Shown piece by piece: positions 557 through 9,278 of a stretch of 64,000 nucleotides of DNA. Source of the stretch: Opitutales bacterium (GTDB lineage Bacteria; Verrucomicrobiota; Verrucomicrobiia; Opitutales; Opitutaceae); the NCBI GenBank assembly GCA_018700525.1, contig JABITN010000136.1, positions 1 to 64,000 on the forward strand, read 5' to 3'. Position numbers and translations under genes: made by a program. The stretch's first letter is position 1; every line of letters begins with the position of its first letter. Under the pieces are notes generated by a model that was not told the DNA's origin, made no database searches, and saw only the letters and a list, made by a program, of their open reading frames with translations.

Positions 557-1300
557 TTAATTCTCCGAGGCCGATTCTTCCTCGAGCTCCGGCTCCGGAT
601 AAACGCGCATTCGTCGAATTTCGACCTGAACCCTAAGTGAATCCGCCCTCCTCGGCGGCTTAATCAGCACCAAAGTACCATACTCCGGATGCGCTCTAAA
701 TCCCGTAGAATACACGATCTTCCACCGGTCGCCCGCAACGACAGCCAATTCGATCGGCATCTCGCCAATCGCCTCCGCATCATAATTCAAATCCGCCCCA
801 AACCCAAAATCCAGAGGAAACGAGTCATCGCCCAGTCGACCCATCAGTCGAGCCCCAGTCAAATTGAAGAAACGAATCGTTCCCCCTTCGAAAATCCCCG
901 GACTCTCGTCCGCAACCATAACCGTATAAGGCAAATTCCGAACAACGTCGCGTTTCGCCAGAAACACCAGCAAAGCCCTAGAATCGATATCATCGAAATT
1001 CACGACTGCCACCACTTGCTCGAACTCACGACCCTGCTCATCCTTTAAGATTTTGAAAAACGAGACCTCATCAGCTCCCTCCGGCAATCGTTGCACGGTC
1101 GTTCGAAATCGAGGATCAAACGCGATCTCAACGACCTCATCATCCGCATCGTAGTAATGAAGACCTTCGAAAAGATCGTCTCCAAACGCGCGGGCCGTGA
1201 AGAGAAAGGAATCATCCAAAGCCGCCGCGTTGGACACATCCACTCCAACGCTCAAACGAGCGAACGCAAAAAGCAGCAAGCAAACCCCTCGGATTCTCAT
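557..1300 (-). CDS. Secreted protein of unknown function, last gene of the pseudopilin operon
   Basis: This 247-residue protein starts with a hydrophobic stretch (LLLFAFARLSVGV) that looks like a signal peptide. The rest has no helix-rich or membrane segment; it alternates short hydrophobic and charged stretches, suggesting a beta-rich fold. The last 12 residues are acidic. I recognise no domain. Its ATG overlaps the stop codon of the preceding large pseudopilin gene by the ATGA arrangement, so the two are probably translationally coupled. Being locked at the end of the five-gene pseudopilin operon, it may be a periplasmic partner or substrate of the pilus-like fibre. That role is inference only. 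Confidence 0.75.
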   Translation of the reverse strand: MRIRGVCLLLFAFARLSVGVDVSNAAALDDSFLFTARAFGDDLFEGLHYYDADDEVVEIAFDPRFRTTVQRLPEGADEVSFFKILKDEQGREFEQVVAVVNFDDIDSRALLVFLAKRDVVRNLPYTVMVADESPGIFEGGTIRFFNLTGARLMGRLGDDSFPLDFGFGADLNYDAEAIGEMPIELAVVAGDRWKIVYSTGFRAHPEYGTLVLIKPPRRADSLRVQVEIRRMRVYPEPELEEESASEN

Positions 1301-4300
1301 AGCTCGTCCCCCGTCATCCAGCGAAACGCGATTACCTTAAATTGGCGGCCAAACTCGCCGGGAGCCTCTCCCGTTGGTGCCATAACATCTCCGCTATTCG
1401 GATCCGTTGAATGTTTCGCATGCGTGCGCTGCACAATCGCCTCGCAATACGCTCGAGCCAAAATCTCTTGATCATCAAAAGGGTTAACCGCATCGCCATA
1501 CGCTCGAATCACGAACGTATCGCTACGAGCAGACAAAAACGGAGCGATCGCGGTCAACACGTCTTGTTGAGTCAAATAACTAGACGTGTAAGTTTCCGTA
1601 TTCGTTCCATTAAGACCCGCTTCGCTTATCGCCGTCTTAATAACGCCCGAATCGATAAAATCCTGCAAACTTACAAAAGGCCCCATTGGAGCAATCGTCC
1701 CTTGTCGCCGCGCTCGAATCCCCTTCACTATTTTCAAAGCGAAAAGCTCTATCTCCGCATCGGAAAACGACCGCAGTCCTTTGCGAAACCGTTCGCGGGT
1801 TACATCATCCGCATCTGTAGCATAAACTCCCTGCCACGTCTCCTCGGCCGACTGCGAAAAACGGAGAAACTGATTCGAGCCTGCCAAATTCAACTCAGTC
1901 GCACCACCTGCACCATCAGCATACTCCCAAGCCCCCAATCGAATGCTCTTCAACAATGAAGCCCACGCTTCCACGGAAGTTGAATTAATATTAAACGCTC
2001 CATTTAGATAAAGGTGCTTTGCAGAATCTATATTTATTACGTCATTAATCGGAGGATTACCCGCAACCGTCATCCGTCCATTCGGCAGAGCATCCCCAAC
2101 CTCCCAATTGGTAGAATCGACCTGCGGTACTGTAGAAAGGAAATATCGGTCAAAAACATCGTTAATCGATCCTGCAGCGCCCGCCGTCACCGCATCCGCC
2201 AAACTCATCCCCAAGTGCCCTCGCACTCCTGATGGAAACTCCGCCATTTGCAAAGCACCCAATGAAAGAAACTCCTGACGCGGAAGCTCGAAAATCGGAA
2301 TATTGTGAGTCACATCAGGAGAACCAATATCATTGTGCCCTAATAACCCAACGGCGGAAGCTTCAAAGAAATGCTCAACAGAATTGGCATTTCCGGGAAG
2401 CTTATAATCTGAATCGAACATCGAACTCAGTACCCCTGGATTCAAGGCTCCGCTTCGAGGATCAAAGCCAACCCAATCGACATCAGAATCTCTCGGATCC
2501 CCAACTTCCCACACATACGCGATATTTGGAAATTCTGTATTCTTAACGGGAACAGGACTCGTATTCATAGATAAATACGCTCCTGTATTTACTCGGAATT
2601 CGCTAACAACTTCGCCATCGATTTCCAAATCAAATTCAGGGGTCCAAGCAGGAATATCAAAATAGATACGATCCAAAATGTCACCCCTACCCGAAGATGG
2701 GCTCGCAATAGAAGTGTAATCCGGTAGTCCACTTGTATAGAATTTCAAAGGATCTTCAGCCGGGGGGGCAGATGATTCGGCTAAAAATACTCGATTCGTA
2801 CCGTCTAGCGGATCAAATACTCCGACAAATGAACGCGTTTCCCCTGGGTTCCATTGCTCCCCCAGCCCACTTGCTGTAATTTCGAACTCAGTAACGCCAG
2901 ACATCAAATCGGAAAACCCGACTGGATCACTAGTTAAAAAGGTTACGGATGCCCGAGTATAAGTGGCCCTAAATCCATCCGACCCCGAGACCACATGAGG
3001 ATTCTTCAACCGAAAAACGAGCGGCGTTGTCGTCTCAATAGCACTCGTATATGGATTCATCAGCCGAACGCTAAATTCCAATTGACCCATAACCGCACTT
3101 GTTTCCGTAATTGGAGCCAAATTCGGAGCGATCAGACGCACCGCCAATTTCATTCCCGTCAATACCGGCGCTATTGAAGGACGAGGACTGCCTACACCGA
3201 ATATGGTCTCCTTTGCCCCTATCTCATAAACCCGCGTCAATGCACTGGGCGAAGTAGAAACCAAAGCTCCAACATTCAAATACGGCATCAACGTATCATT
3301 AACAAAAACATCCGGACTGGAATCCGGAAAATCGACCGACTCCATTACAGATAGATCTCTCCTCAACCCTCCCCTCTGCGTATCCACGATCAACCCACGA
3401 GAAAGAGAAGCTGCATCATGAAACCGCAATAGTACGTCATTATACGTTAGCCCATCCAACATTGATCTAACAGTACTCGATCCTGCTGCCCTATATCCTT
3501 CCCTTAACGCAAGATCACTAACAATAGACCCAAGACGAGCGTCGGTCGCAACCAACTGCCTTGAATTGACTTCCCAGTGGTTTCGATGTCCTAACATTTG
3601 CAAAAGGCGAATTTGATCCGGGGTTCCGATATTCTCAGTTAACTCATCAGCATCATCATCGATCGAATAACCATCATGCATTACATCCGGCACAGAGTCT
3701 TTTATAAGATAACTAGCCTTCACCCCGTTATCCCCAACCCAATAAGCATAATGGCCGATCGCCGCCTCTACGGCATCGTCCATGCCAACAATATTTTCCG
3801 ACTCCACCGCTATTTTAGGTACGGAAATATCATGTAACGCCTGATCGGCTCCTGAGTTTTTGGGTTTAGCCGAGCTCTCTCCAACGAGTTTCACGAGATC
3901 ATTCGAAGTGTTTAATCCTGCGACAAATGGATTCACACCTTGAGAATCACTCGTCAAATCGTAATCCTCATCCAGCGGACGGGTCACCAACCATACCGGA
4001 GTATCCGTTGTATTATCCACATTCCAAACTCCAGTCCAATGAGGTTGATGCACATTGCTAGTGCCTACAACCGATGGATCATTAAAATCCTCATCAAGAG
4101 TTGCACGGTTTCCATCGGCCGTCGCCGTAATCCGCTGGTCTGGACCTGCGAATTCCTGCAAATCTCCCAATGCCATCTGCAAAGCCAAACGCGCATTCGC
4201 CCTTGCTATTCGGAGTCCTTGATCATACCGGCTTGAAGCAGATTCCACTTGAGTCAGCGACACCAAAGATAGTGCAAGCAAAAGCACAATGCTGGCCAAT

Positions 4301-4365
4301 GAAAATACAAGGATCAGAGCGAATCCCTTGCGGTCCCGAAAAGCGAATCGTTTACGAAGGTCCAT
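1297..4365 (-). CDS. Verru_Chthon cassette protein A-like, large GspK-like pseudopilin
   Basis: The protein (about 1022 residues) opens with a short basic segment, then KGFALILVFSLASIVLLLAL, a prepilin-like leader and transmembrane helix. It lacks the usual Glu at position 5 after the Gly cleavage site, as is known for the tip pseudopilin GspK. The following helix contains ANARLALQMALGDLQ, typical of PilX/GspK-like and Verru_Chthon cassette A proteins. The very long rest is probably periplasmic. I chose the ATG at 4365 rather than the in-frame start 72 bases upstream, because GGAAAGGGAGGG lies just before it and it touches the stop of the preceding gene (TAGAATG). The family was named from Verrucomicrobium and Chthoniobacter; its function is unknown. 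Confidence 0.85.
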   Translation of the reverse strand: MDLRKRFAFRDRKGFALILVFSLASIVLLLALSLVSLTQVESASSRYDQGLRIARANARLALQMALGDLQEFAGPDQRITATADGNRATLDEDFNDPSVVGTSNVHQPHWTGVWNVDNTTDTPVWLVTRPLDEDYDLTSDSQGVNPFVAGLNTSNDLVKLVGESSAKPKNSGADQALHDISVPKIAVESENIVGMDDAVEAAIGHYAYWVGDNGVKASYLIKDSVPDVMHDGYSIDDDADELTENIGTPDQIRLLQMLGHRNHWEVNSRQLVATDARLGSIVSDLALREGYRAAGSSTVRSMLDGLTYNDVLLRFHDAASLSRGLIVDTQRGGLRRDLSVMESVDFPDSSPDVFVNDTLMPYLNVGALVSTSPSALTRVYEIGAKETIFGVGSPRPSIAPVLTGMKLAVRLIAPNLAPITETSAVMGQLEFSVRLMNPYTSAIETTTPLVFRLKNPHVVSGSDGFRATYTRASVTFLTSDPVGFSDLMSGVTEFEITASGLGEQWNPGETRSFVGVFDPLDGTNRVFLAESSAPPAEDPLKFYTSGLPDYTSIASPSSGRGDILDRIYFDIPAWTPEFDLEIDGEVVSEFRVNTGAYLSMNTSPVPVKNTEFPNIAYVWEVGDPRDSDVDWVGFDPRSGALNPGVLSSMFDSDYKLPGNANSVEHFFEASAVGLLGHNDIGSPDVTHNIPIFELPRQEFLSLGALQMAEFPSGVRGHLGMSLADAVTAGAAGSINDVFDRYFLSTVPQVDSTNWEVGDALPNGRMTVAGNPPINDVINIDSAKHLYLNGAFNINSTSVEAWASLLKSIRLGAWEYADGAGGATELNLAGSNQFLRFSQSAEETWQGVYATDADDVTRERFRKGLRSFSDAEIELFALKIVKGIRARRQGTIAPMGPFVSLQDFIDSGVIKTAISEAGLNGTNTETYTSSYLTQQDVLTAIAPFLSARSDTFVIRAYGDAVNPFDDQEILARAYCEAIVQRTHAKHSTDPNSGDVMAPTGEAPGEFGRQFKVIAFRWMTGDEL

Positions 4366-4366
4366 T

Positions 4367-5320
4367 CTATAACCCTCCCTTTCCACCGACTCTAATATAA
4401 CGTCGATACAGCCGAGATTTTTTTTCGACGGTTTCAACCCAAAGACTATCGTCTCCCGCCTCTTCCATTTCTAGAATTTCATCCGCTCCGTCTTGATTCA
4501 AAACACGTAGAAACACTTCAACAACATCCGGGTATCGATCTTCATCATCCGCCGCTTCTAAAAATGTCGATCCTCGATGAAACAGACTTTCAACCGATGA
4601 CTCTAACGCGCTACTCTCATCCGCTGGAAAGATCAATCGCAGACCGTCCGGCGCATCATCTCCGCTAGGGTCCTGGTTCACTGGATCAGTTTCATAAACA
4701 TACAAACGCACACCAAAATCCACCACATTGATCGCAAGAATATTTCCTCGGTCCGTGCCAACAATATAACCACTAGCTCCCAAATACATCCCACTTTCAA
4801 AATCGAAAACATCACTCGACGCGTCAATCAAAGCAGCCTCCGCCTCAAGAACGGTCGCCTTCATCGAAGCTACGTTTCTATATAACATATAGCGAGCCTC
4901 ACCCACGCCATCCTTTATGGTCGTGCGAATAATCCGATATCCTACGGCATTGAAACTCGGTGCGGCGGTAAACATTCGCACCCATGATCCAGCCCAGCCG
5001 TATTGATGCAGAGACGGGTCAAAGCCATCGGCAATCGGGCGTTTGGTTCCGCCTTCCCATTTCGCACCCGAATTGTCATTCAACACATCGACCGCAAACA
5101 TCACATCATCGCCTTCCCGAAAAAACGCCGATTCGAAATCGCGGGCGATTGTATCCAAAGCGCCTCGCCCCTCCGTTTCACGCGCTACCGAATCGCCCAC
5201 ATGATCCCAAGCAATTACGAAGTCGCGCCCAATCGATATGAAGAAATAGCCGATTACGGCAGTGACGCCCAAAGCGGCCATCAGCTCGATCAAAGTAAAT
5301 CCGTTTCGGCTCACTCTCAT
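4367..5320 (-). CDS. Verru_Chthon cassette protein C-like, GspJ-like pseudopilin
   Basis: The 317-residue protein begins MRVSRNGFTLIELMAALGVT, a textbook type IV prepilin/pseudopilin leader with Gly before the cleavage site and Glu at position 5, followed by one transmembrane helix. After the helix comes RGALDTIARDFESAFF, resembling the post-helix segment of GspJ-type minor pseudopilins. It should be processed by a prepilin peptidase and sit in a periplasmic pseudopilus. Its start overlaps the stop of the gene upstream by four bases (5317-5320), and its stop abuts the next gene, so it is in a tight operon. Assignment to cassette family C is from leader, size and gene order. Confidence 0.85.
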   Translation of the reverse strand: MRVSRNGFTLIELMAALGVTAVIGYFFISIGRDFVIAWDHVGDSVARETEGRGALDTIARDFESAFFREGDDVMFAVDVLNDNSGAKWEGGTKRPIADGFDPSLHQYGWAGSWVRMFTAAPSFNAVGYRIIRTTIKDGVGEARYMLYRNVASMKATVLEAEAALIDASSDVFDFESGMYLGASGYIVGTDRGNILAINVVDFGVRLYVYETDPVNQDPSGDDAPDGLRLIFPADESSALESSVESLFHRGSTFLEAADDEDRYPDVVEVFLRVLNQDGADEILEMEEAGDDSLWVETVEKKSRLYRRYIRVGGKGGL

Positions 5321-5856
5321 TTGCTCAAAACAACCGGCAGAACCAACTGCTGCAGCCCTTCTGCGTTGTCTTCATTATTGACAAACCCTCCCTCGGAATC
5401 GGAAACGAATATCGGCCAAATAACATTAAACAAAAATACACGATAAGCATCGCTTGCATTGTACGCGTAATCAACCGGAGCAGTGACCGTTACTTTATAA
5501 TATTTCTCGCCATCTGCCATCGACACTCCGTTTTGCTCAATCGATTGCAAATCCTGACTGCCATAGAATTCCACATCGCTCGAAAGAAAGGATTCATTGA
5601 AGACATCGTACGCAAGATCTTCTCCGATCGGGCCAGCCCCCGCATCAACAATCGTCGCCCCCCTCAATTCAAGCTCTAGCAACGATTTTATTTCGACCGC
5701 ATTCGGAGCCTGTAAATCGGTCTCGGAATCTCGATACGACAAGGCAACCAAACCAATAGCCGGTACCACAATAATTGCAAAGACCGCCAAAGCCAAAACC
5801 ACCTCCAACAAACTGAAAGCCCATGATTTACGATTTTCGTTCCACTCCCTTTTCAT
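5317..5856 (-). CDS. Verru_Chthon cassette protein B-like, GspI-like pseudopilin
   Basis: This 179-residue protein has a basic start and then SWAFSLLEVVLALAVFAIIV. This is a prepilin leader with Ala instead of Gly before Phe but with Glu at position 5 kept. The LLEVvLALAvFA pattern is characteristic of GspI minor pseudopilins and of Verru_Chthon cassette B. It ends with a beta-rich C-terminal part. It overlaps the upstream gene at 5853-5856 and the downstream gene at 5317-5320. In type II secretion, GspI nucleates the pseudopilus tip with GspJ and GspK, and the homologous order here suggests a similar tip role. Confidence 0.83.
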   Translation of the reverse strand: MKREWNENRKSWAFSLLEVVLALAVFAIIVVPAIGLVALSYRDSETDLQAPNAVEIKSLLELELRGATIVDAGAGPIGEDLAYDVFNESFLSSDVEFYGSQDLQSIEQNGVSMADGEKYYKVTVTAPVDYAYNASDAYRVFLFNVIWPIFVSDSEGGFVNNEDNAEGLQQLVLPVVLSK

Positions 5857-6632
5857 AAGGCATCCGGATCGTCCACCGCGTAACTAACGCCATTAAGTCG
5901 AAGCATAACCCCTTTGGCTTGCTCGCTATTCTCGAACAGCAAGCCACCACCACTTTCATACCGTGCCAACCCTACGACCAAGTGATTACTTTGCGAACCA
6001 CCCGCAGCCGAGCATACAGAAAAACCTACGCCCTTCACGCGACCATCCGGACCGAATTGATAGCCAATCCAATTCTGTTCCTCACCTGTCGCCGCATCAA
6101 GAGCGACTGTACTCATAACCGGATACTCGATCGCTCCAATCGCTTTCGTCGAAACCCCATTTGAACAATGATACTGACTTCGAACATCCGGATCGGCTCC
6201 CGCCAATGGCCACAAAGCATCGAAACCAAACCCATCCGTCTCAGCATCTTCACTGGATTGCGGAACAAAATAAACGCCCTTGGGTAAATAGACTCCCGAG
6301 TGAGCCGCTTTCCAATTCGTTGAATTGTACTCCTCTTCCACAATCACGCCTGCGTATCGCAGAAACTTTTCCTCATCGGCGCTATCGTAGTTAATGATGA
6401 GCATTGCATTGCTCCCTTGCATAATTGCTTGATTGCGAGCGAAACGGAGTAATCCGTGCAATGTATTCCGAGCCGCGTTCACCGCCCCAGGAGGAGAGCT
6501 CGCTTGATAAGCGACAAAGCCCATAGTCGAGAGCGTTATCATAATAGAGAGCACGACGAGCATCTCCAACAACGTAAAACCGCTTTTCGAACGCCCCTGG
6601 CCCCTTAACTGTTTCCTTCGGTAAACCATCAC
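5853..6632 (-). CDS. Verru_Chthon cassette protein D-like, GspH-like pseudopilin
   Basis: The 259-residue product has a basic N-terminus then SGFTLLEMLVVLSIMITLST, a clear pseudopilin leader with Glu5 and a single transmembrane helix. After it comes AARNTLHGLLRFARNQAIMQ, very like the GspH/FimT pattern (a..L...l..aRs.Ai). The C-terminal part is predicted to be a periplasmic beta domain. It is the second gene of the operon, overlapping the GspG-like gene by four bases. The family match is to Verru_Chthon cassette D; equating it with GspH is my inference from the post-helix motif and position. Confidence 0.83.
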   Translation of the reverse strand: MMVYRRKQLRGQGRSKSGFTLLEMLVVLSIMITLSTMGFVAYQASSPPGAVNAARNTLHGLLRFARNQAIMQGSNAMLIINYDSADEEKFLRYAGVIVEEEYNSTNWKAAHSGVYLPKGVYFVPQSSEDAETDGFGFDALWPLAGADPDVRSQYHCSNGVSTKAIGAIEYPVMSTVALDAATGEEQNWIGYQFGPDGRVKGVGFSVCSAAGGSQSNHLVVGLARYESGGGLLFENSEQAKGVMLRLNGVSYAVDDPDAL

Positions 6633-7204
6633 TGAGCATAGATGTTATCCAAATTCTTAGAATCGCTTTGATTCTTTTTGCCAGCTAGGGTCACTTCGCT
6701 ATACTTGCCATCAGGCCCCGCCGAAAACAGCACGTAGTTGAAATTCTCCCAATCTTCGTCATCCGGATCGAATCGGTACCGATATGGATTGCCCCAAGGA
6801 TCGACGATCGCATTCAGCAGAACCGCAGGCGTTTCACCGACAATCGGAAATTCATCGCTGCCAAACTCCATAGCATTCCGATCAATCAGAATTTTGAAAT
6901 TTCCAACTTCGCCGTTCGGAGCAAGGCGACCAGCCAATGCGTTAAACAGAATATCCTCCATCGAAGAAAGTCCCGCTACTGTCATTTCTTTGGGATACTC
7001 GCCAAAAGTCCCCTTATAGTCCTCGAGCATTTGCTGAATTCGAACCATATCCGTGCTCGCACGTTTTCCCGAAGAATCGCCCAAAACACCGCTAAAGCTC
7101 ACAGCCAAGATCCCAGCGAGGATGACGATGATCGAAATCGTCCCGATCAATTCAATGAGCGTAAACCCCTGCCGCTTTCTAACCTGTTCCCTTCCGACTC
7201 GCAT
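6629..7204 (-). CDS. GspG-like major pseudopilin
   Basis: The protein (191 residues) starts with a basic leader and then QGFTLIELIGTISIIVILAG, a canonical pseudopilin signal and helix. The C-terminal half contains DPWGNPYRYRF and then FSAGPDGK. These match the GspG signature (DPWGNPY ... SxGxDG) that forms the calcium-binding region of major type II secretion pseudopilins. It is the first gene of the operon; the intergenic space of 130 bp to acs holds the likely promoter. The usual GspG is about 140 residues, so this one has an extended middle and tail. No secretin, GspE or GspF gene is in the window, so the assembly machinery must be elsewhere. Confidence 0.88.
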   Translation of the reverse strand: MRVGREQVRKRQGFTLIELIGTISIIVILAGILAVSFSGVLGDSSGKRASTDMVRIQQMLEDYKGTFGEYPKEMTVAGLSSMEDILFNALAGRLAPNGEVGNFKILIDRNAMEFGSDEFPIVGETPAVLLNAIVDPWGNPYRYRFDPDDEDWENFNYVLFSAGPDGKYSEVTLAGKKNQSDSKNLDNIYAQ

Positions 7205-7334: not shown

Positions 7335-9278
7335 TTATCCCGCCTGGAGAGCCTTCACTACGGAAACGTCTTCGAGCGTCGTGGTGTCACCGTGAATCTC
7401 TTTGCCCGCTGCGATGTCCTTGAGTAAGCGACGCATGATTTTACCGCTACGCGTTTTCGGCAACGCTGGAGCGAAACGAATTTCGTCTGGCTTGGCAAAC
7501 GCTCCGATCTCTCCGCCGACATGATTTCGCAAAATCGCCTTCAGTTTGTCATCACCTTCAATACCTTCCTTTAAAGTAACGAACGCGACAACGGCGCTGC
7601 CCTTTACTTCGTGAGGCCGGCCGACGATCGCCGCTTCCGCAACGGAATGATGGCTAACCAAAGCACTTTCGATCTCCGCAGTCCCGAGTCGGTGTCCGGA
7701 AACATTCAATACATCATCAATTCGGCCGACAATCCAGAAATACCCGTCTTTGTCTTCTCGGCAACCATCGCCGCAGAAATACACGCCGTCGTACTCGCTC
7801 CAATAAGTATCCTTGTACCGCTTATTATCGCCATAAAGCGTACGCAACATCGATGGCCAAGGCTGGGTAAGCACAAGCTTGCCGCTCTCTCCTTTACGAA
7901 CTGCCTTTCCTTCGTCGTTAAAAACTTTCGCAACTACTCCGAAAAACGGTAAACCCGCCGAGCCAGGCTTCGACGCCACCGCTCCAGGCAAAGTAGTGAT
8001 CATGATGCCGCCCGTTTCGGTTTGCCACCATGTATCCACGATCGGACAACGCCCGCCGCCAACTGTCTTGTGATACCACTTCCAGACTTCCGGGTTGATT
8101 GGCTCGCCAACCGATCCTAGCAAGCGCAAGGAACTCAAATCGTGTTTCTTGATGTGCTGGTCGCCCCATTTCATGAACGCACGAATCGCCGTCGGGGCCG
8201 TGTAGAAGATCGTTACCTTGTGCCGGTCCACGATCGACCAAAAGCGATCCGGTCCCGGTTCATTCGGCGCACCTTCGTAAATTACGTTCGTACCGCCATT
8301 GCTCAGAATTCCATAAACCACATAACTGTGACCCGTAATCCAGCCGATATCAGCCGTGCACCAATACGTGTCGCTCTCCTTCAGATCGAAAACGTACTTC
8401 GACGTAATCGTCGTCCCAAGCAAATAACCTCCACTGGTATGCAAGACGCCCTTTGGCTTCCCGGTACTGCCACTTGTATATAGAACGAATAGCGGCGTTT
8501 CGCTATCGAATGCCTTCGCTTTATGCACATGCGACGCTTCAGCGATCACATCGTGCCACCAATAATCGCGGCCTGCTTTCATACTAACGCGATTGCCGAT
8601 ACGTTTAAGCGTGATCACGCTTTCTACCGACTTACAGCCCTTTAGAGCCGCATTTACGTTTTTCTTGAGATCGATGATTTTACCGCGGCGCCAACCGCCA
8701 TCAGCCGTAATTACGATCTTGGCCGAGCAATCATTGACCCGATCCTTTATCGATTCCGAGCTAAATCCACCGAAAATCACCGTGTGGATCGCTCCTATCC
8801 GAGCACAGGACAGCATAGCCACAACTGCCTCCCCAACCATCGGCATATAAATGGCAACTCGATCGCCCTTCTTCACGCCGAGCGCTTCAAGTGCATTGGA
8901 GAACTTACAGATCTCTACATGTAACTGCCTGTAAGTTAGAGTCTTCTGATCTCCAGGCTCTCCTTCAAATATCAATGCGGCCTTGTTTTCTCGAGGCGTA
9001 CCCAAGTGACGATCGACGCAATTCTCGCAAACATTGAGCTTCCCGCCAACAAACCATTTCGCGTGCGGTTCTTTCCACTTGAGAGTCTCCTTCCATGGCT
9101 TCCGCCACTGCAGCAAATCTTTTGCTTGAGTATTCCAAAACTTTTCTGGATTGTTAACAGATTCCGAGTAAAGCCTCTTGTATTCGGCCATACTTTGAAC
9201 GGCAGTCTCTTTTCTGAATTCCTGAGAAGGCGAAATCTTTTCACCATCTCTCGCTACTGAAGTAATCTTGTCTGCCAC
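7335..9278 (-). CDS. acs: Acetyl-CoA synthetase (AMP-forming)
   Basis: The 647-residue length is normal for the family. The enzyme turns acetate, ATP and CoA into acetyl-CoA through an acetyl-adenylate. Visible signatures are the ANL-family P-loop [11 protein letters not shown] near residue 270, the WWQTETGG motif around residue 415, and the C-terminal [12 protein letters not shown] near residue 613, whose Lys is the adenylation residue regulated by acetylation in other bacteria. The start is a GTG at 9278. It is oriented away from rho; the 224-bp divergent gap should hold both promoters. Confidence 0.95.

What the first reader, a model, noticed from the sequence alone, without database searches (positions are those of the whole stretch)
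1297..7204. Verru_Chthon cassette is colinear with GspG-H-I-J-K
The five genes run in the order GspG-like, D, B, C, A. Leaders and post-helix motifs match, in that order, GspG (DPWGNPY ... GPDG), GspH (L..aRn.Ai), GspI (FSLLEVvLALAvFA), GspJ and the Glu5-lacking GspK. This suggests that the Verru_Chthon cassette is a phylum-specific pseudopilus with a giant GspK-like tip (about 1022 residues), not an unrelated gene set. A tip this large could present a binding or enzymatic surface.
Basis: partly seen in the sequence, partly recalled or inferred. Interest (0 to 1): 0.6.

Follow-up and report, generated by a model that had tools for sequence, protein, structure and literature searches.

The report
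Pseudopilus operon with giant tip protein
A six-gene operon in a Verrucomicrobiota bacterium encodes parts like those at the tip of a protein-secretion piston, with a tip protein about three times the usual size, and it carries no motor genes of its own.

Summary
On the minus strand G-D-B-C-A (7204 to 1297) run in the order GspG-H-I-J-K. The predicted structure of A matches GspK (Z 12.1-12.8; next 4.0), that of C matches GspJ and one Thermus pilin (Z 10.2-11.1; next 4.1). G is GspG-like by sequence; D and B are GspH- and GspI-like by sequence only. Verru_Chthon models score the window proteins far below cut-off. Among 46 units with B, C or D upstream of A, none breaks the order.

New: (1) a sixth gene, Z (557-1300), without known relatives, is in the operon; all 32 Z-positive genomes carry A. 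(2) Nine related cassettes, six at the same acs-rho site, have a 411-446-residue A lacking about 515 residues of the window A, and no Z. (3) No motor genes were found in 121 loci, but A co-occurs with a type IV pilus-type ATPase (35 of 42 A-positive genomes, 2 of 15 A-negative); a kinship-aware test was not significant. (4) 36 of 83 A genes have no pilin neighbours. Best reading: a pseudopilus with an enlarged tip, driven in trans. No enzymatic role is supported.

The parts
6629..7204 (-). G: GspG-like major pseudopilin, 191 aa
   Evidence: TIGR01710 8.3e-12 (below cut-off), PF08334 31.4 bits over its gathering score 21; hhalign 99.6% to canonical GspG, 97.7% without the first 55 residues
5853..6632 (-). 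D: GspH-like minor pseudopilin, 259 aa, GTG start
   Evidence: TIGR01708 1.8e-9 over residues 17-96, below cut-off; hhalign 97.6% to canonical GspH, 29.8% without the first 30 residues; not folded
5317..5856 (-). B: GspI-like minor pseudopilin, 179 aa
   Evidence: TIGR01707 0.003 in the leader only; 18 of 20 relatives hit gspI; hhalign 94.8% over 21 leader columns; not folded
4367..5320 (-). C: GspJ-like minor pseudopilin, 317 aa
   Evidence: AlphaFold2 model, pLDDT 76.5; eight GspJ-type entries at Z 10.2-11.0; gspJ hits 7 of 21 relatives, best 1.4e-9, not the window protein
1297..4365 (-). A: giant GspK-like cap, 1022 aa, no Glu at +5
   Evidence: AlphaFold2 model, pLDDT 75.5; three GspK entries at Z 12.1-12.8, next 4.0
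2335..3681 (-). A residues 229-677: main part of the sequence that short A proteins lack; predicted Ig-like stretch within it at residues about 396-609
   Evidence: alignment with nine short A proteins; Ig-like rows only at Z 4.0 or less
557..1300 (-). Z: sixth gene of the operon, 247 aa, signal-peptide-like start, overlaps A by 4 bases
   Evidence: open frame; beside A in 72 of 91 units with 1.2 kb downstream in hand; no relative in NCBIfam, Pfam or PDB
7335..9278 (-). acs-like gene, synteny marker upstream of the cassette (not part of it; name from recall of the family)
   Evidence: its homologue lies beside most of the cassette loci listed, including six of nine short-A loci

Best explanation
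The operon makes a second set of T2SS-type pseudopilins without a motor of its own: G, then H (D), I (B), J (C) and K (A). D, B, C and A form a tip complex capped by A. A is a GspK whose helical-domain region is enlarged by about 500 residues, so the tip carries a large extra module. Z is exported and works with that module. The filament is primed by this tip and assembled by a motor encoded elsewhere, more likely the type IV pilus-type cluster PilB-PilT-E-F than the canonical T2SS; the tip then binds a surface, polymer or cargo. Shown: gene order, operon structure, predicted folds of A and C, absence of motor genes at the locus, co-occurrences. Inferred: the complex, the export and role of Z, the choice of motor, and binding as the function.
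For: GspK is the only fold standing out for A and GspJ-type chains for C. A lacks Glu +5, as tip caps do (PMC10191384, passages). No inverted order in 83 units. No ATPase, platform, secretin or prepilin peptidase homologue in 121 cassette loci. Nine short A proteins keep the core and lack both the added sequence and a neighbouring Z; all 32 Z-positive of 57 genomes are A-positive. The T4P-type ATPase is in 35 of 42 A-positive and 2 of 15 A-negative genomes, p 2.4e-6 uncorrected. Precedent: ComZ, a GspK-like tip pilin with an inserted domain (PMC6561018, abstract and passages).
Against: Beyond the helix, sequence profiles do not link A, B or C to K, I or J. Seven A-positive genomes lack the ATPase; G025 (100% complete), G017 (97%) and G028 (96%) have a cassette without it. 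The pair test on a GspK tree is not significant (median p 0.125), and A is not clustered on that tree (11 changes, 10.2 in shuffles), so it is a poor guide to kinship. Ten of 42 A-positive genomes lack Z, among them ones with giant A such as G017 and G020. 36 of 83 A units have no pilin neighbours. The complex was not modelled; D and B were not folded.
Confidence: 0.55

Rival explanations
1. The set is assembled by the cell's own T2SS. A is an alternative giant cap that replaces canonical GspK and changes which proteins are pushed out; solitary A-Z pairs are further exchangeable caps on the same piston.
For: A complete T2SS operon is in the genome. Canonical GspK is in 40 of 42 A-positive genomes. 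G, D and the GspK fold are of T2SS type. G025, with a cassette, lacks the T4P-type ATPase orthologue but has canonical GspK.
Against: Canonical GspK is also in 11 of 15 A-negative genomes, so the T2SS predicts A poorly (p 0.036). The cassette brings its own G, which a mere cap swap would not need.
Confidence: 0.28
2. A and Z are not filament parts. A uses a prepilin-type leader and a GspK-like scaffold as a membrane-anchored periplasmic or surface protein with Z, and the pilin genes are accessory.
For: 36 of 83 A units have no pilin neighbours; A-Z alone is the second commonest pattern (31 of 121 loci).
Against: 42 of 83 units have the complete ordered set. Other genes for a filament exist in trans. 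On a tree of A the two arrangements cluster (8 changes, about 27 in shuffles), so solitary A may be a derived use.
Confidence: 0.13
3. The likeness to GspJ and GspK is an artefact of the shared leader helix and of AlphaFold2 having been trained on solved pseudopilins.
For: Profiles beyond the helix are silent for A and C. The alignments have only 26 and 21 rows. Foldseek alone gave no match at E <= 0.001.
Against: Two separate models each pick the partner expected from gene order, with a gap of 6 or more Z units to the next rows, over ranges that reach the C terminus. The GspK model hits 16 of 26 giant and 9 of 9 short A proteins at E <= 1, best 9.9e-8 and 2.5e-8, mostly over its first 65-75 positions; one short A has a second weak stretch at model 181-228 (E 0.115).
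Confidence: 0.04

Closest known systems
T2SS pseudopilus tip complex GspH-I-J-K with GspG (XcpUVWX; PMC6211770, passages)
   Same: Gene order, predicted folds of J and K, cap without Glu5, GspG-like major subunit
   Different: No D/E/F/L/M genes at the locus; K is 1022 residues against 320-380 in canonical relatives; extra gene Z; canonical T2SS present separately
Verru_Chthon cassette proteins A-D (NCBIfam TIGR02600, 02598, 02599, 02596)
   Same: Weak hits by 19 of 26 A, 15 of 20 B, 21 of 21 C and 14 of 15 D relatives at E <= 1
   Different: Window proteins far below the cut-offs or without a hit; the models bear no function, and no paper in the held library names them
Thermus ComZ (PMC6561018, abstract and passages)
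   Same: GspK-like tip pilin with a large inserted domain
   Different: In ComZ a beta-solenoid of about 380 residues sits between the last two strands; here the added sequence starts after residue 228, well before the C-terminal strands, in the region where GspK has its helical domain (inferred), and has no beta-solenoid match
Modular pilins of Streptococcus sanguinis type 4 pili (PMC10191384, passages)
   Same: Extra domain on a tip pilin
   Different: There the domains are described as adhesive; here the fold and ligand of the added sequence are unknown
Cyanobacterial hps pseudopilins (PMC4284469, passages)
   Same: A set of pseudopilin genes; the HpsC model hits 18 of 21 C relatives, best 1.5e-8
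   Different: hps genes lie with glycosyltransferases and serve polysaccharide secretion; one D relative touched the HpsA model at E 0.08

Membership tests
T2SS minor pseudopilin GspK (protein A) | GspK fold, pilin domain plus helical domain | tested here: met
   Model of A: Z 12.1-12.8 to three GspK entries, next 4.0; a prediction, not a solved structure
T2SS minor pseudopilin GspK (protein A) | Prepilin leader, no Glu at +5 | tested here: met
   0 Glu in 117 rows that cover the column, of 158
T2SS minor pseudopilin GspK (protein A) | Curated NF037980 cut-off (130 bits) | tested here: not met
   No hit to the window A; 16 of 26 relatives hit weakly. By the curated model A is GspK-like, not a filed GspK
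T2SS minor pseudopilin GspK (protein A) | Complex with I and J at the tip | not testable with these tools
   No complex prediction available
T2SS minor pseudopilin GspJ (protein C) | GspJ fold | tested here: met
   Eight GspJ-type entries at Z 10.2-11.0, tied with Thermus TTHA1219 at 11.1, so T2SS and T4P origin are not separated
T2SS major pseudopilin GspG (protein G) | T2SSG domain over the Pfam gathering score | tested here: met
   PF08334 31.4 bits against 21
T2SS major pseudopilin GspG (protein G) | Curated TIGR01710 cut-off (88.85 bits) | tested here: not met
   45.3 bits
T2SS minor pseudopilins GspH (D) and GspI (B) | Curated cut-offs TIGR01708 (80) and TIGR01707 (44.35 bits) | tested here: not met
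   37.8 and 18 bits
T2SS minor pseudopilins GspH (D) and GspI (B) | GspH and GspI folds | not tested
Complete type II secretion system | GspD, E, F encoded with the pseudopilins | tested here: not met
   None in 121 cassette loci; a separate complete operon on contig C62
Verru_Chthon cassette (TIGR02596/02598/02599/02600) | Curated cut-offs | tested here: not met
   16.1, 14.0, 13.2 bits and no hit for the window proteins
Type IV pilus minor pilin set with PilX | PilX_N domain in the cap | tested here: inconclusive
   2 of 26 A relatives, best E 0.27; not the window A

The most novel reading that the evidence does not exclude
A hybrid filament: T2SS-type pseudopilins with a giant exchangeable cap, assembled and possibly retracted by the T4P-type PilB-PilT-E-F motor, with Z as the dedicated partner of the cap's added module. 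Solitary A-Z pairs would be spare caps, so that these bacteria hold a set of tips that one filament can swap.
Probability: 0.2. Interest if true: 0.75.

Novelty: new variant of a known kind. Interest (0 to 1): 0.55.

Why it matters
It gives an uncharacterised cassette a concrete identity, a pseudopilus tip set with an oversized GspK, and it supplies a natural comparison: the same chromosomal site with and without the added sequence and Z. If the tip is a receptor or cargo selector, it could help explain how polymer-degrading Verrucomicrobiota handle large substrates. In one relative a pseudopilin is among 17 genes raised on alginate (PMC13274419, passages); the passages do not say whether it belongs to this cassette.

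Tried and rejected
Profile-profile comparison as the main proof: with leaders removed it links only G, and weakly D, to their T2SS counterparts; A's C-terminal part alone gave 3.2% against canonical GspK, lined up on the NvNS/NvNT motif, and no PDB relative. The A profile found nothing among PDB sequences at E <= 10, whereas the canonical GspK alignment found XcpX at 3e-18, so that control worked. PF03934 was dropped as a GspK marker because in the own genome it hit an unrelated-looking 802-aa frame; I fetched that stretch and did not analyse it. An enzymatic reading of the added sequence: Foldseek's best rows were GH16 enzymes at E 0.012-0.02, probability 0.07-0.10, rmsd 19-22, read as noise; VIA rows over about 395-609 were mostly Ig-like at Z 4.0 or less; residues 229-690 alone found no PDB relative at E <= 1. 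Z has no relative in NCBIfam, Pfam or PDB beyond chance hits. A first count of residue +5 in A was circular because the pattern excluded Glu; it was replaced by alignment columns. I first took the ATPase of contig C169 for an orphan; in five of six fetched relatives it lies beside a PilB-like gene.

Rows dropped: L049 was in A1 but left out of A3 and A4. Proteins without a recognisable leader were left out of A2-A5. The A tree used the 83 units with 4 kb upstream out of 106. The C tree used 68 distinct C proteins above 150 bits with a leader and at least 250 residues. The 35/7/2/13 table counts an orthologue at 48% identity and 530 bits or more (the next hit has 470 bits) plus two partial hits at 87% and 57% (G006, G021); the threshold was set after seeing the list. 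The pair-test tree is of canonical GspK, 51 of 57 genomes, with long and weak rows, among them G033.

Papers: no paper in the held library names Verru_Chthon or the TIGR numbers. 'Verrucomicrobia' with 'GspK' gave three papers that look unrelated (listing only). Passages only: PMC6211770, PMC10191384, PMC13274419, PMC12487129, PMC4284469; PMC6561018 abstract and passages. Other listed papers: listing only.
Full report
Observation. Five open frames on the minus strand, 7204 to 1297, follow each other in the order G, D, B, C, A. G/D, D/B, B/C and A/Z overlap by 4 bases and C/A lie one base apart, so the operon has six genes; the sixth, Z (557-1300), was not in the finding. The window begins at base 1 of its contig, so what follows Z is unknown. 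The likely start of A is the ATG at 4365, giving 1022 residues.

Sequence families. For the window proteins, G matches GspG (8.3e-12) and Pfam T2SSG, D matches GspH (1.8e-9, residues 17-96), B matches gspI in the leader (0.003), C has no GspJ hit at E <= 10, and A has no hit in NCBIfam or Pfam. Among relatives at E <= 1, GspH hits 15 of 15 D, gspI 18 of 20 B, gspJ 7 of 21 C (best 1.4e-9) and the GspK model 16 of 26 A (best 9.9e-8). Other pilin models hit many of the same proteins, such as ComGE in 19 of 20 B and HpsC in 18 of 21 C, so leader hits alone do not decide. The Verru_Chthon models hit most relatives weakly and the window proteins far below cut-off. With full mature sequences, profile comparison with canonical T2SS pseudopilins of related genomes puts the highest score of every row on the expected partner: G 99.6%, D 97.6%, B 94.8%, C 92.0%, A 30.6% (A against GspH is close at 29.8%). 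Without the first 30 residues only G (98.2%) and D (29.8%) keep a signal. By sequence alone the relation of A, B and C beyond the helix is not shown.

Structure. AlphaFold2 models of A and C, the only two jobs available, had mean pLDDT 75.5 and 76.5. VIA-align of Foldseek's candidates gives three entries above Z 5 for A, all GspK: XcpX 12.8 (rmsd 3.0, 218 of 259 residues), E. coli GspK 12.2 (241 of 280), the Xcp filament model 12.1 (253 of 295); the next is 4.0. For C the ten entries above Z 5 are eight GspJ-type chains at 10.2-11.0 and the Thermus pilin TTHA1219 (11.1 and 10.9); the next is 4.1. Foldseek by itself reported no match at E <= 0.001 for either. The aligned ranges run from the helix to the C terminus.

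Gene order. In 121 loci (the window, 40 stretches of unnamed relatives, 80 named records; some contigs occur twice) the commonest patterns are G-G-D-B-C-A-Z (32), A-Z alone (31) and G-D-B-C-A-Z (14); two rows printed C before B because of over-long open frames. Ordered by gene ends, 83 of 106 distinct A units with 4 kb upstream in hand give 42 complete runs, 4 partial runs, 1 with G only, 36 with nothing recognised, none in another order. In eight A-only loci that I read, no pilin gene lies next to A; one has a G-like frame about 7 kb away. On a tree of A the cassette and solo labels need 8 changes against about 27 in shuffles.

Added sequence and Z. The A profile is found in 168 of 288 genomes of the phylum at E <= 0.001, many by short N-terminal matches only. 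Nine short A proteins (411-446 residues, L228-L236) match the ends of the profile and little in between; aligned with the window A they lack 515 residues, mostly 229-395, 404-560 and 593-677. Six of the nine lie beside acs and rho homologues like the window, and none of the nine loci has Z. Giants have Z beside them in 33 of 40 cassette units and 22 of 33 solo units. All 32 Z-positive genomes among 57 are A-positive, while 10 of 42 A-positive genomes lack Z, some of them with giant A. On a C tree the nine are one group (support 70). Full-length giants also occur in other families of the order and in one more distant family (f38, best about 1e-193), so I infer that the short clade lost the added sequence and Z; this is at most one event, and the tree has no root. 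The added sequence is less conserved than the core (pair identity 0.165 against 0.323).

Machinery. A phmmer search with 12 machinery proteins of the own genome found no ATPase, platform, secretin or prepilin peptidase homologue in the 121 loci, whose flanks reach about 8-10 kb at most. The own genome has a T2SS operon on contig C62 with G, H, I, J, K, D, E, F and two genes at the place of L and M (the last two named from recall), and in all six ATPase-domain proteins, three secretins, one prepilin peptidase and four platform proteins. The ATPase-platform pair of contig C169 stands alone in the window's genus (L218, L275). In five of six fetched relatives its orthologues lie beside a PilB-like gene, in four with a PilT-like gene between (L275 is the exception), and coordinates suggest a neighbouring ATPase in 24 genomes. 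The ATPase is in 35 of 42 A-positive and 2 of 15 A-negative genomes, the two being 67% and 50% complete (Fisher p 2.4e-6, not corrected for kinship). Canonical GspK is in 40 of 42 and 11 of 15 (p 0.036). On a GspK tree five supported independent pairs agree in 4.1 and disagree in 0.0 on average, median p 0.125. Cassette genomes without the ATPase exist (G017, G025, G028). In two genera the motor cluster lies about 9-10 kb from the cassette, and in a third about 11 kb from a remnant of A. This favours a T4P-type motor without proving it.

Interpretation. A review describes H-I-J-K tip complexes capped by a subunit lacking Glu5 and assembly from tip to base (PMC10191384, passages). ComZ is a GspK-like tip pilin with an inserted domain of about 380 residues that binds DNA (PMC6561018, abstract and passages). 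The cassette fits this pattern with a different place and size of enlargement and an extra partner gene. I rate the identity of the set as likely, the motor as open, and the function of the added module as unknown beyond presumed binding.

Noticed in passing
L149 7905-11444; L160 7998-11710: Solitary A-Z pairs without pilin neighbours, for instance in Cerasicoccus frondis; 36 of 83 A units have no recognised pilin gene upstream.
   Followed up: partly
L219 8351-15909 (G000 contig C206): A further secretin locus with small genes that look like PilM/N/O and three pilin-like genes, one with a GspJ-like leader and one without Glu5; names by recall.
   Followed up: no
L053 7113-10300 (G007): In a complete genome of the same genus the A gene is broken by stops and frame changes, and Z is split too.
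   Followed up: no
L272 1183-2025 (G031): A C-terminal remnant of A lies directly beside acs with no G, D, B, C, apparently a decayed cassette.
   Followed up: no
L173: A complete cassette in a record titled Oxalobacteraceae (a metagenome bin), probably misnamed or mis-binned.
   Followed up: no
window 4367-5320 and relatives in A2: 18 of 21 C relatives hit the cyanobacterial polysaccharide-secretion pseudopilin model HpsC, best 1.5e-8.
   Followed up: partly
L036 5463-6209 and many other loci: A second G-like gene between G and D in the commonest cassette pattern, absent from the window.
   Followed up: no
L225 8373-9302 (G000 contig C267, about 100.6 kb): A 310-aa ATPase-domain protein further along the window's own contig, beyond the window.
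   Followed up: no
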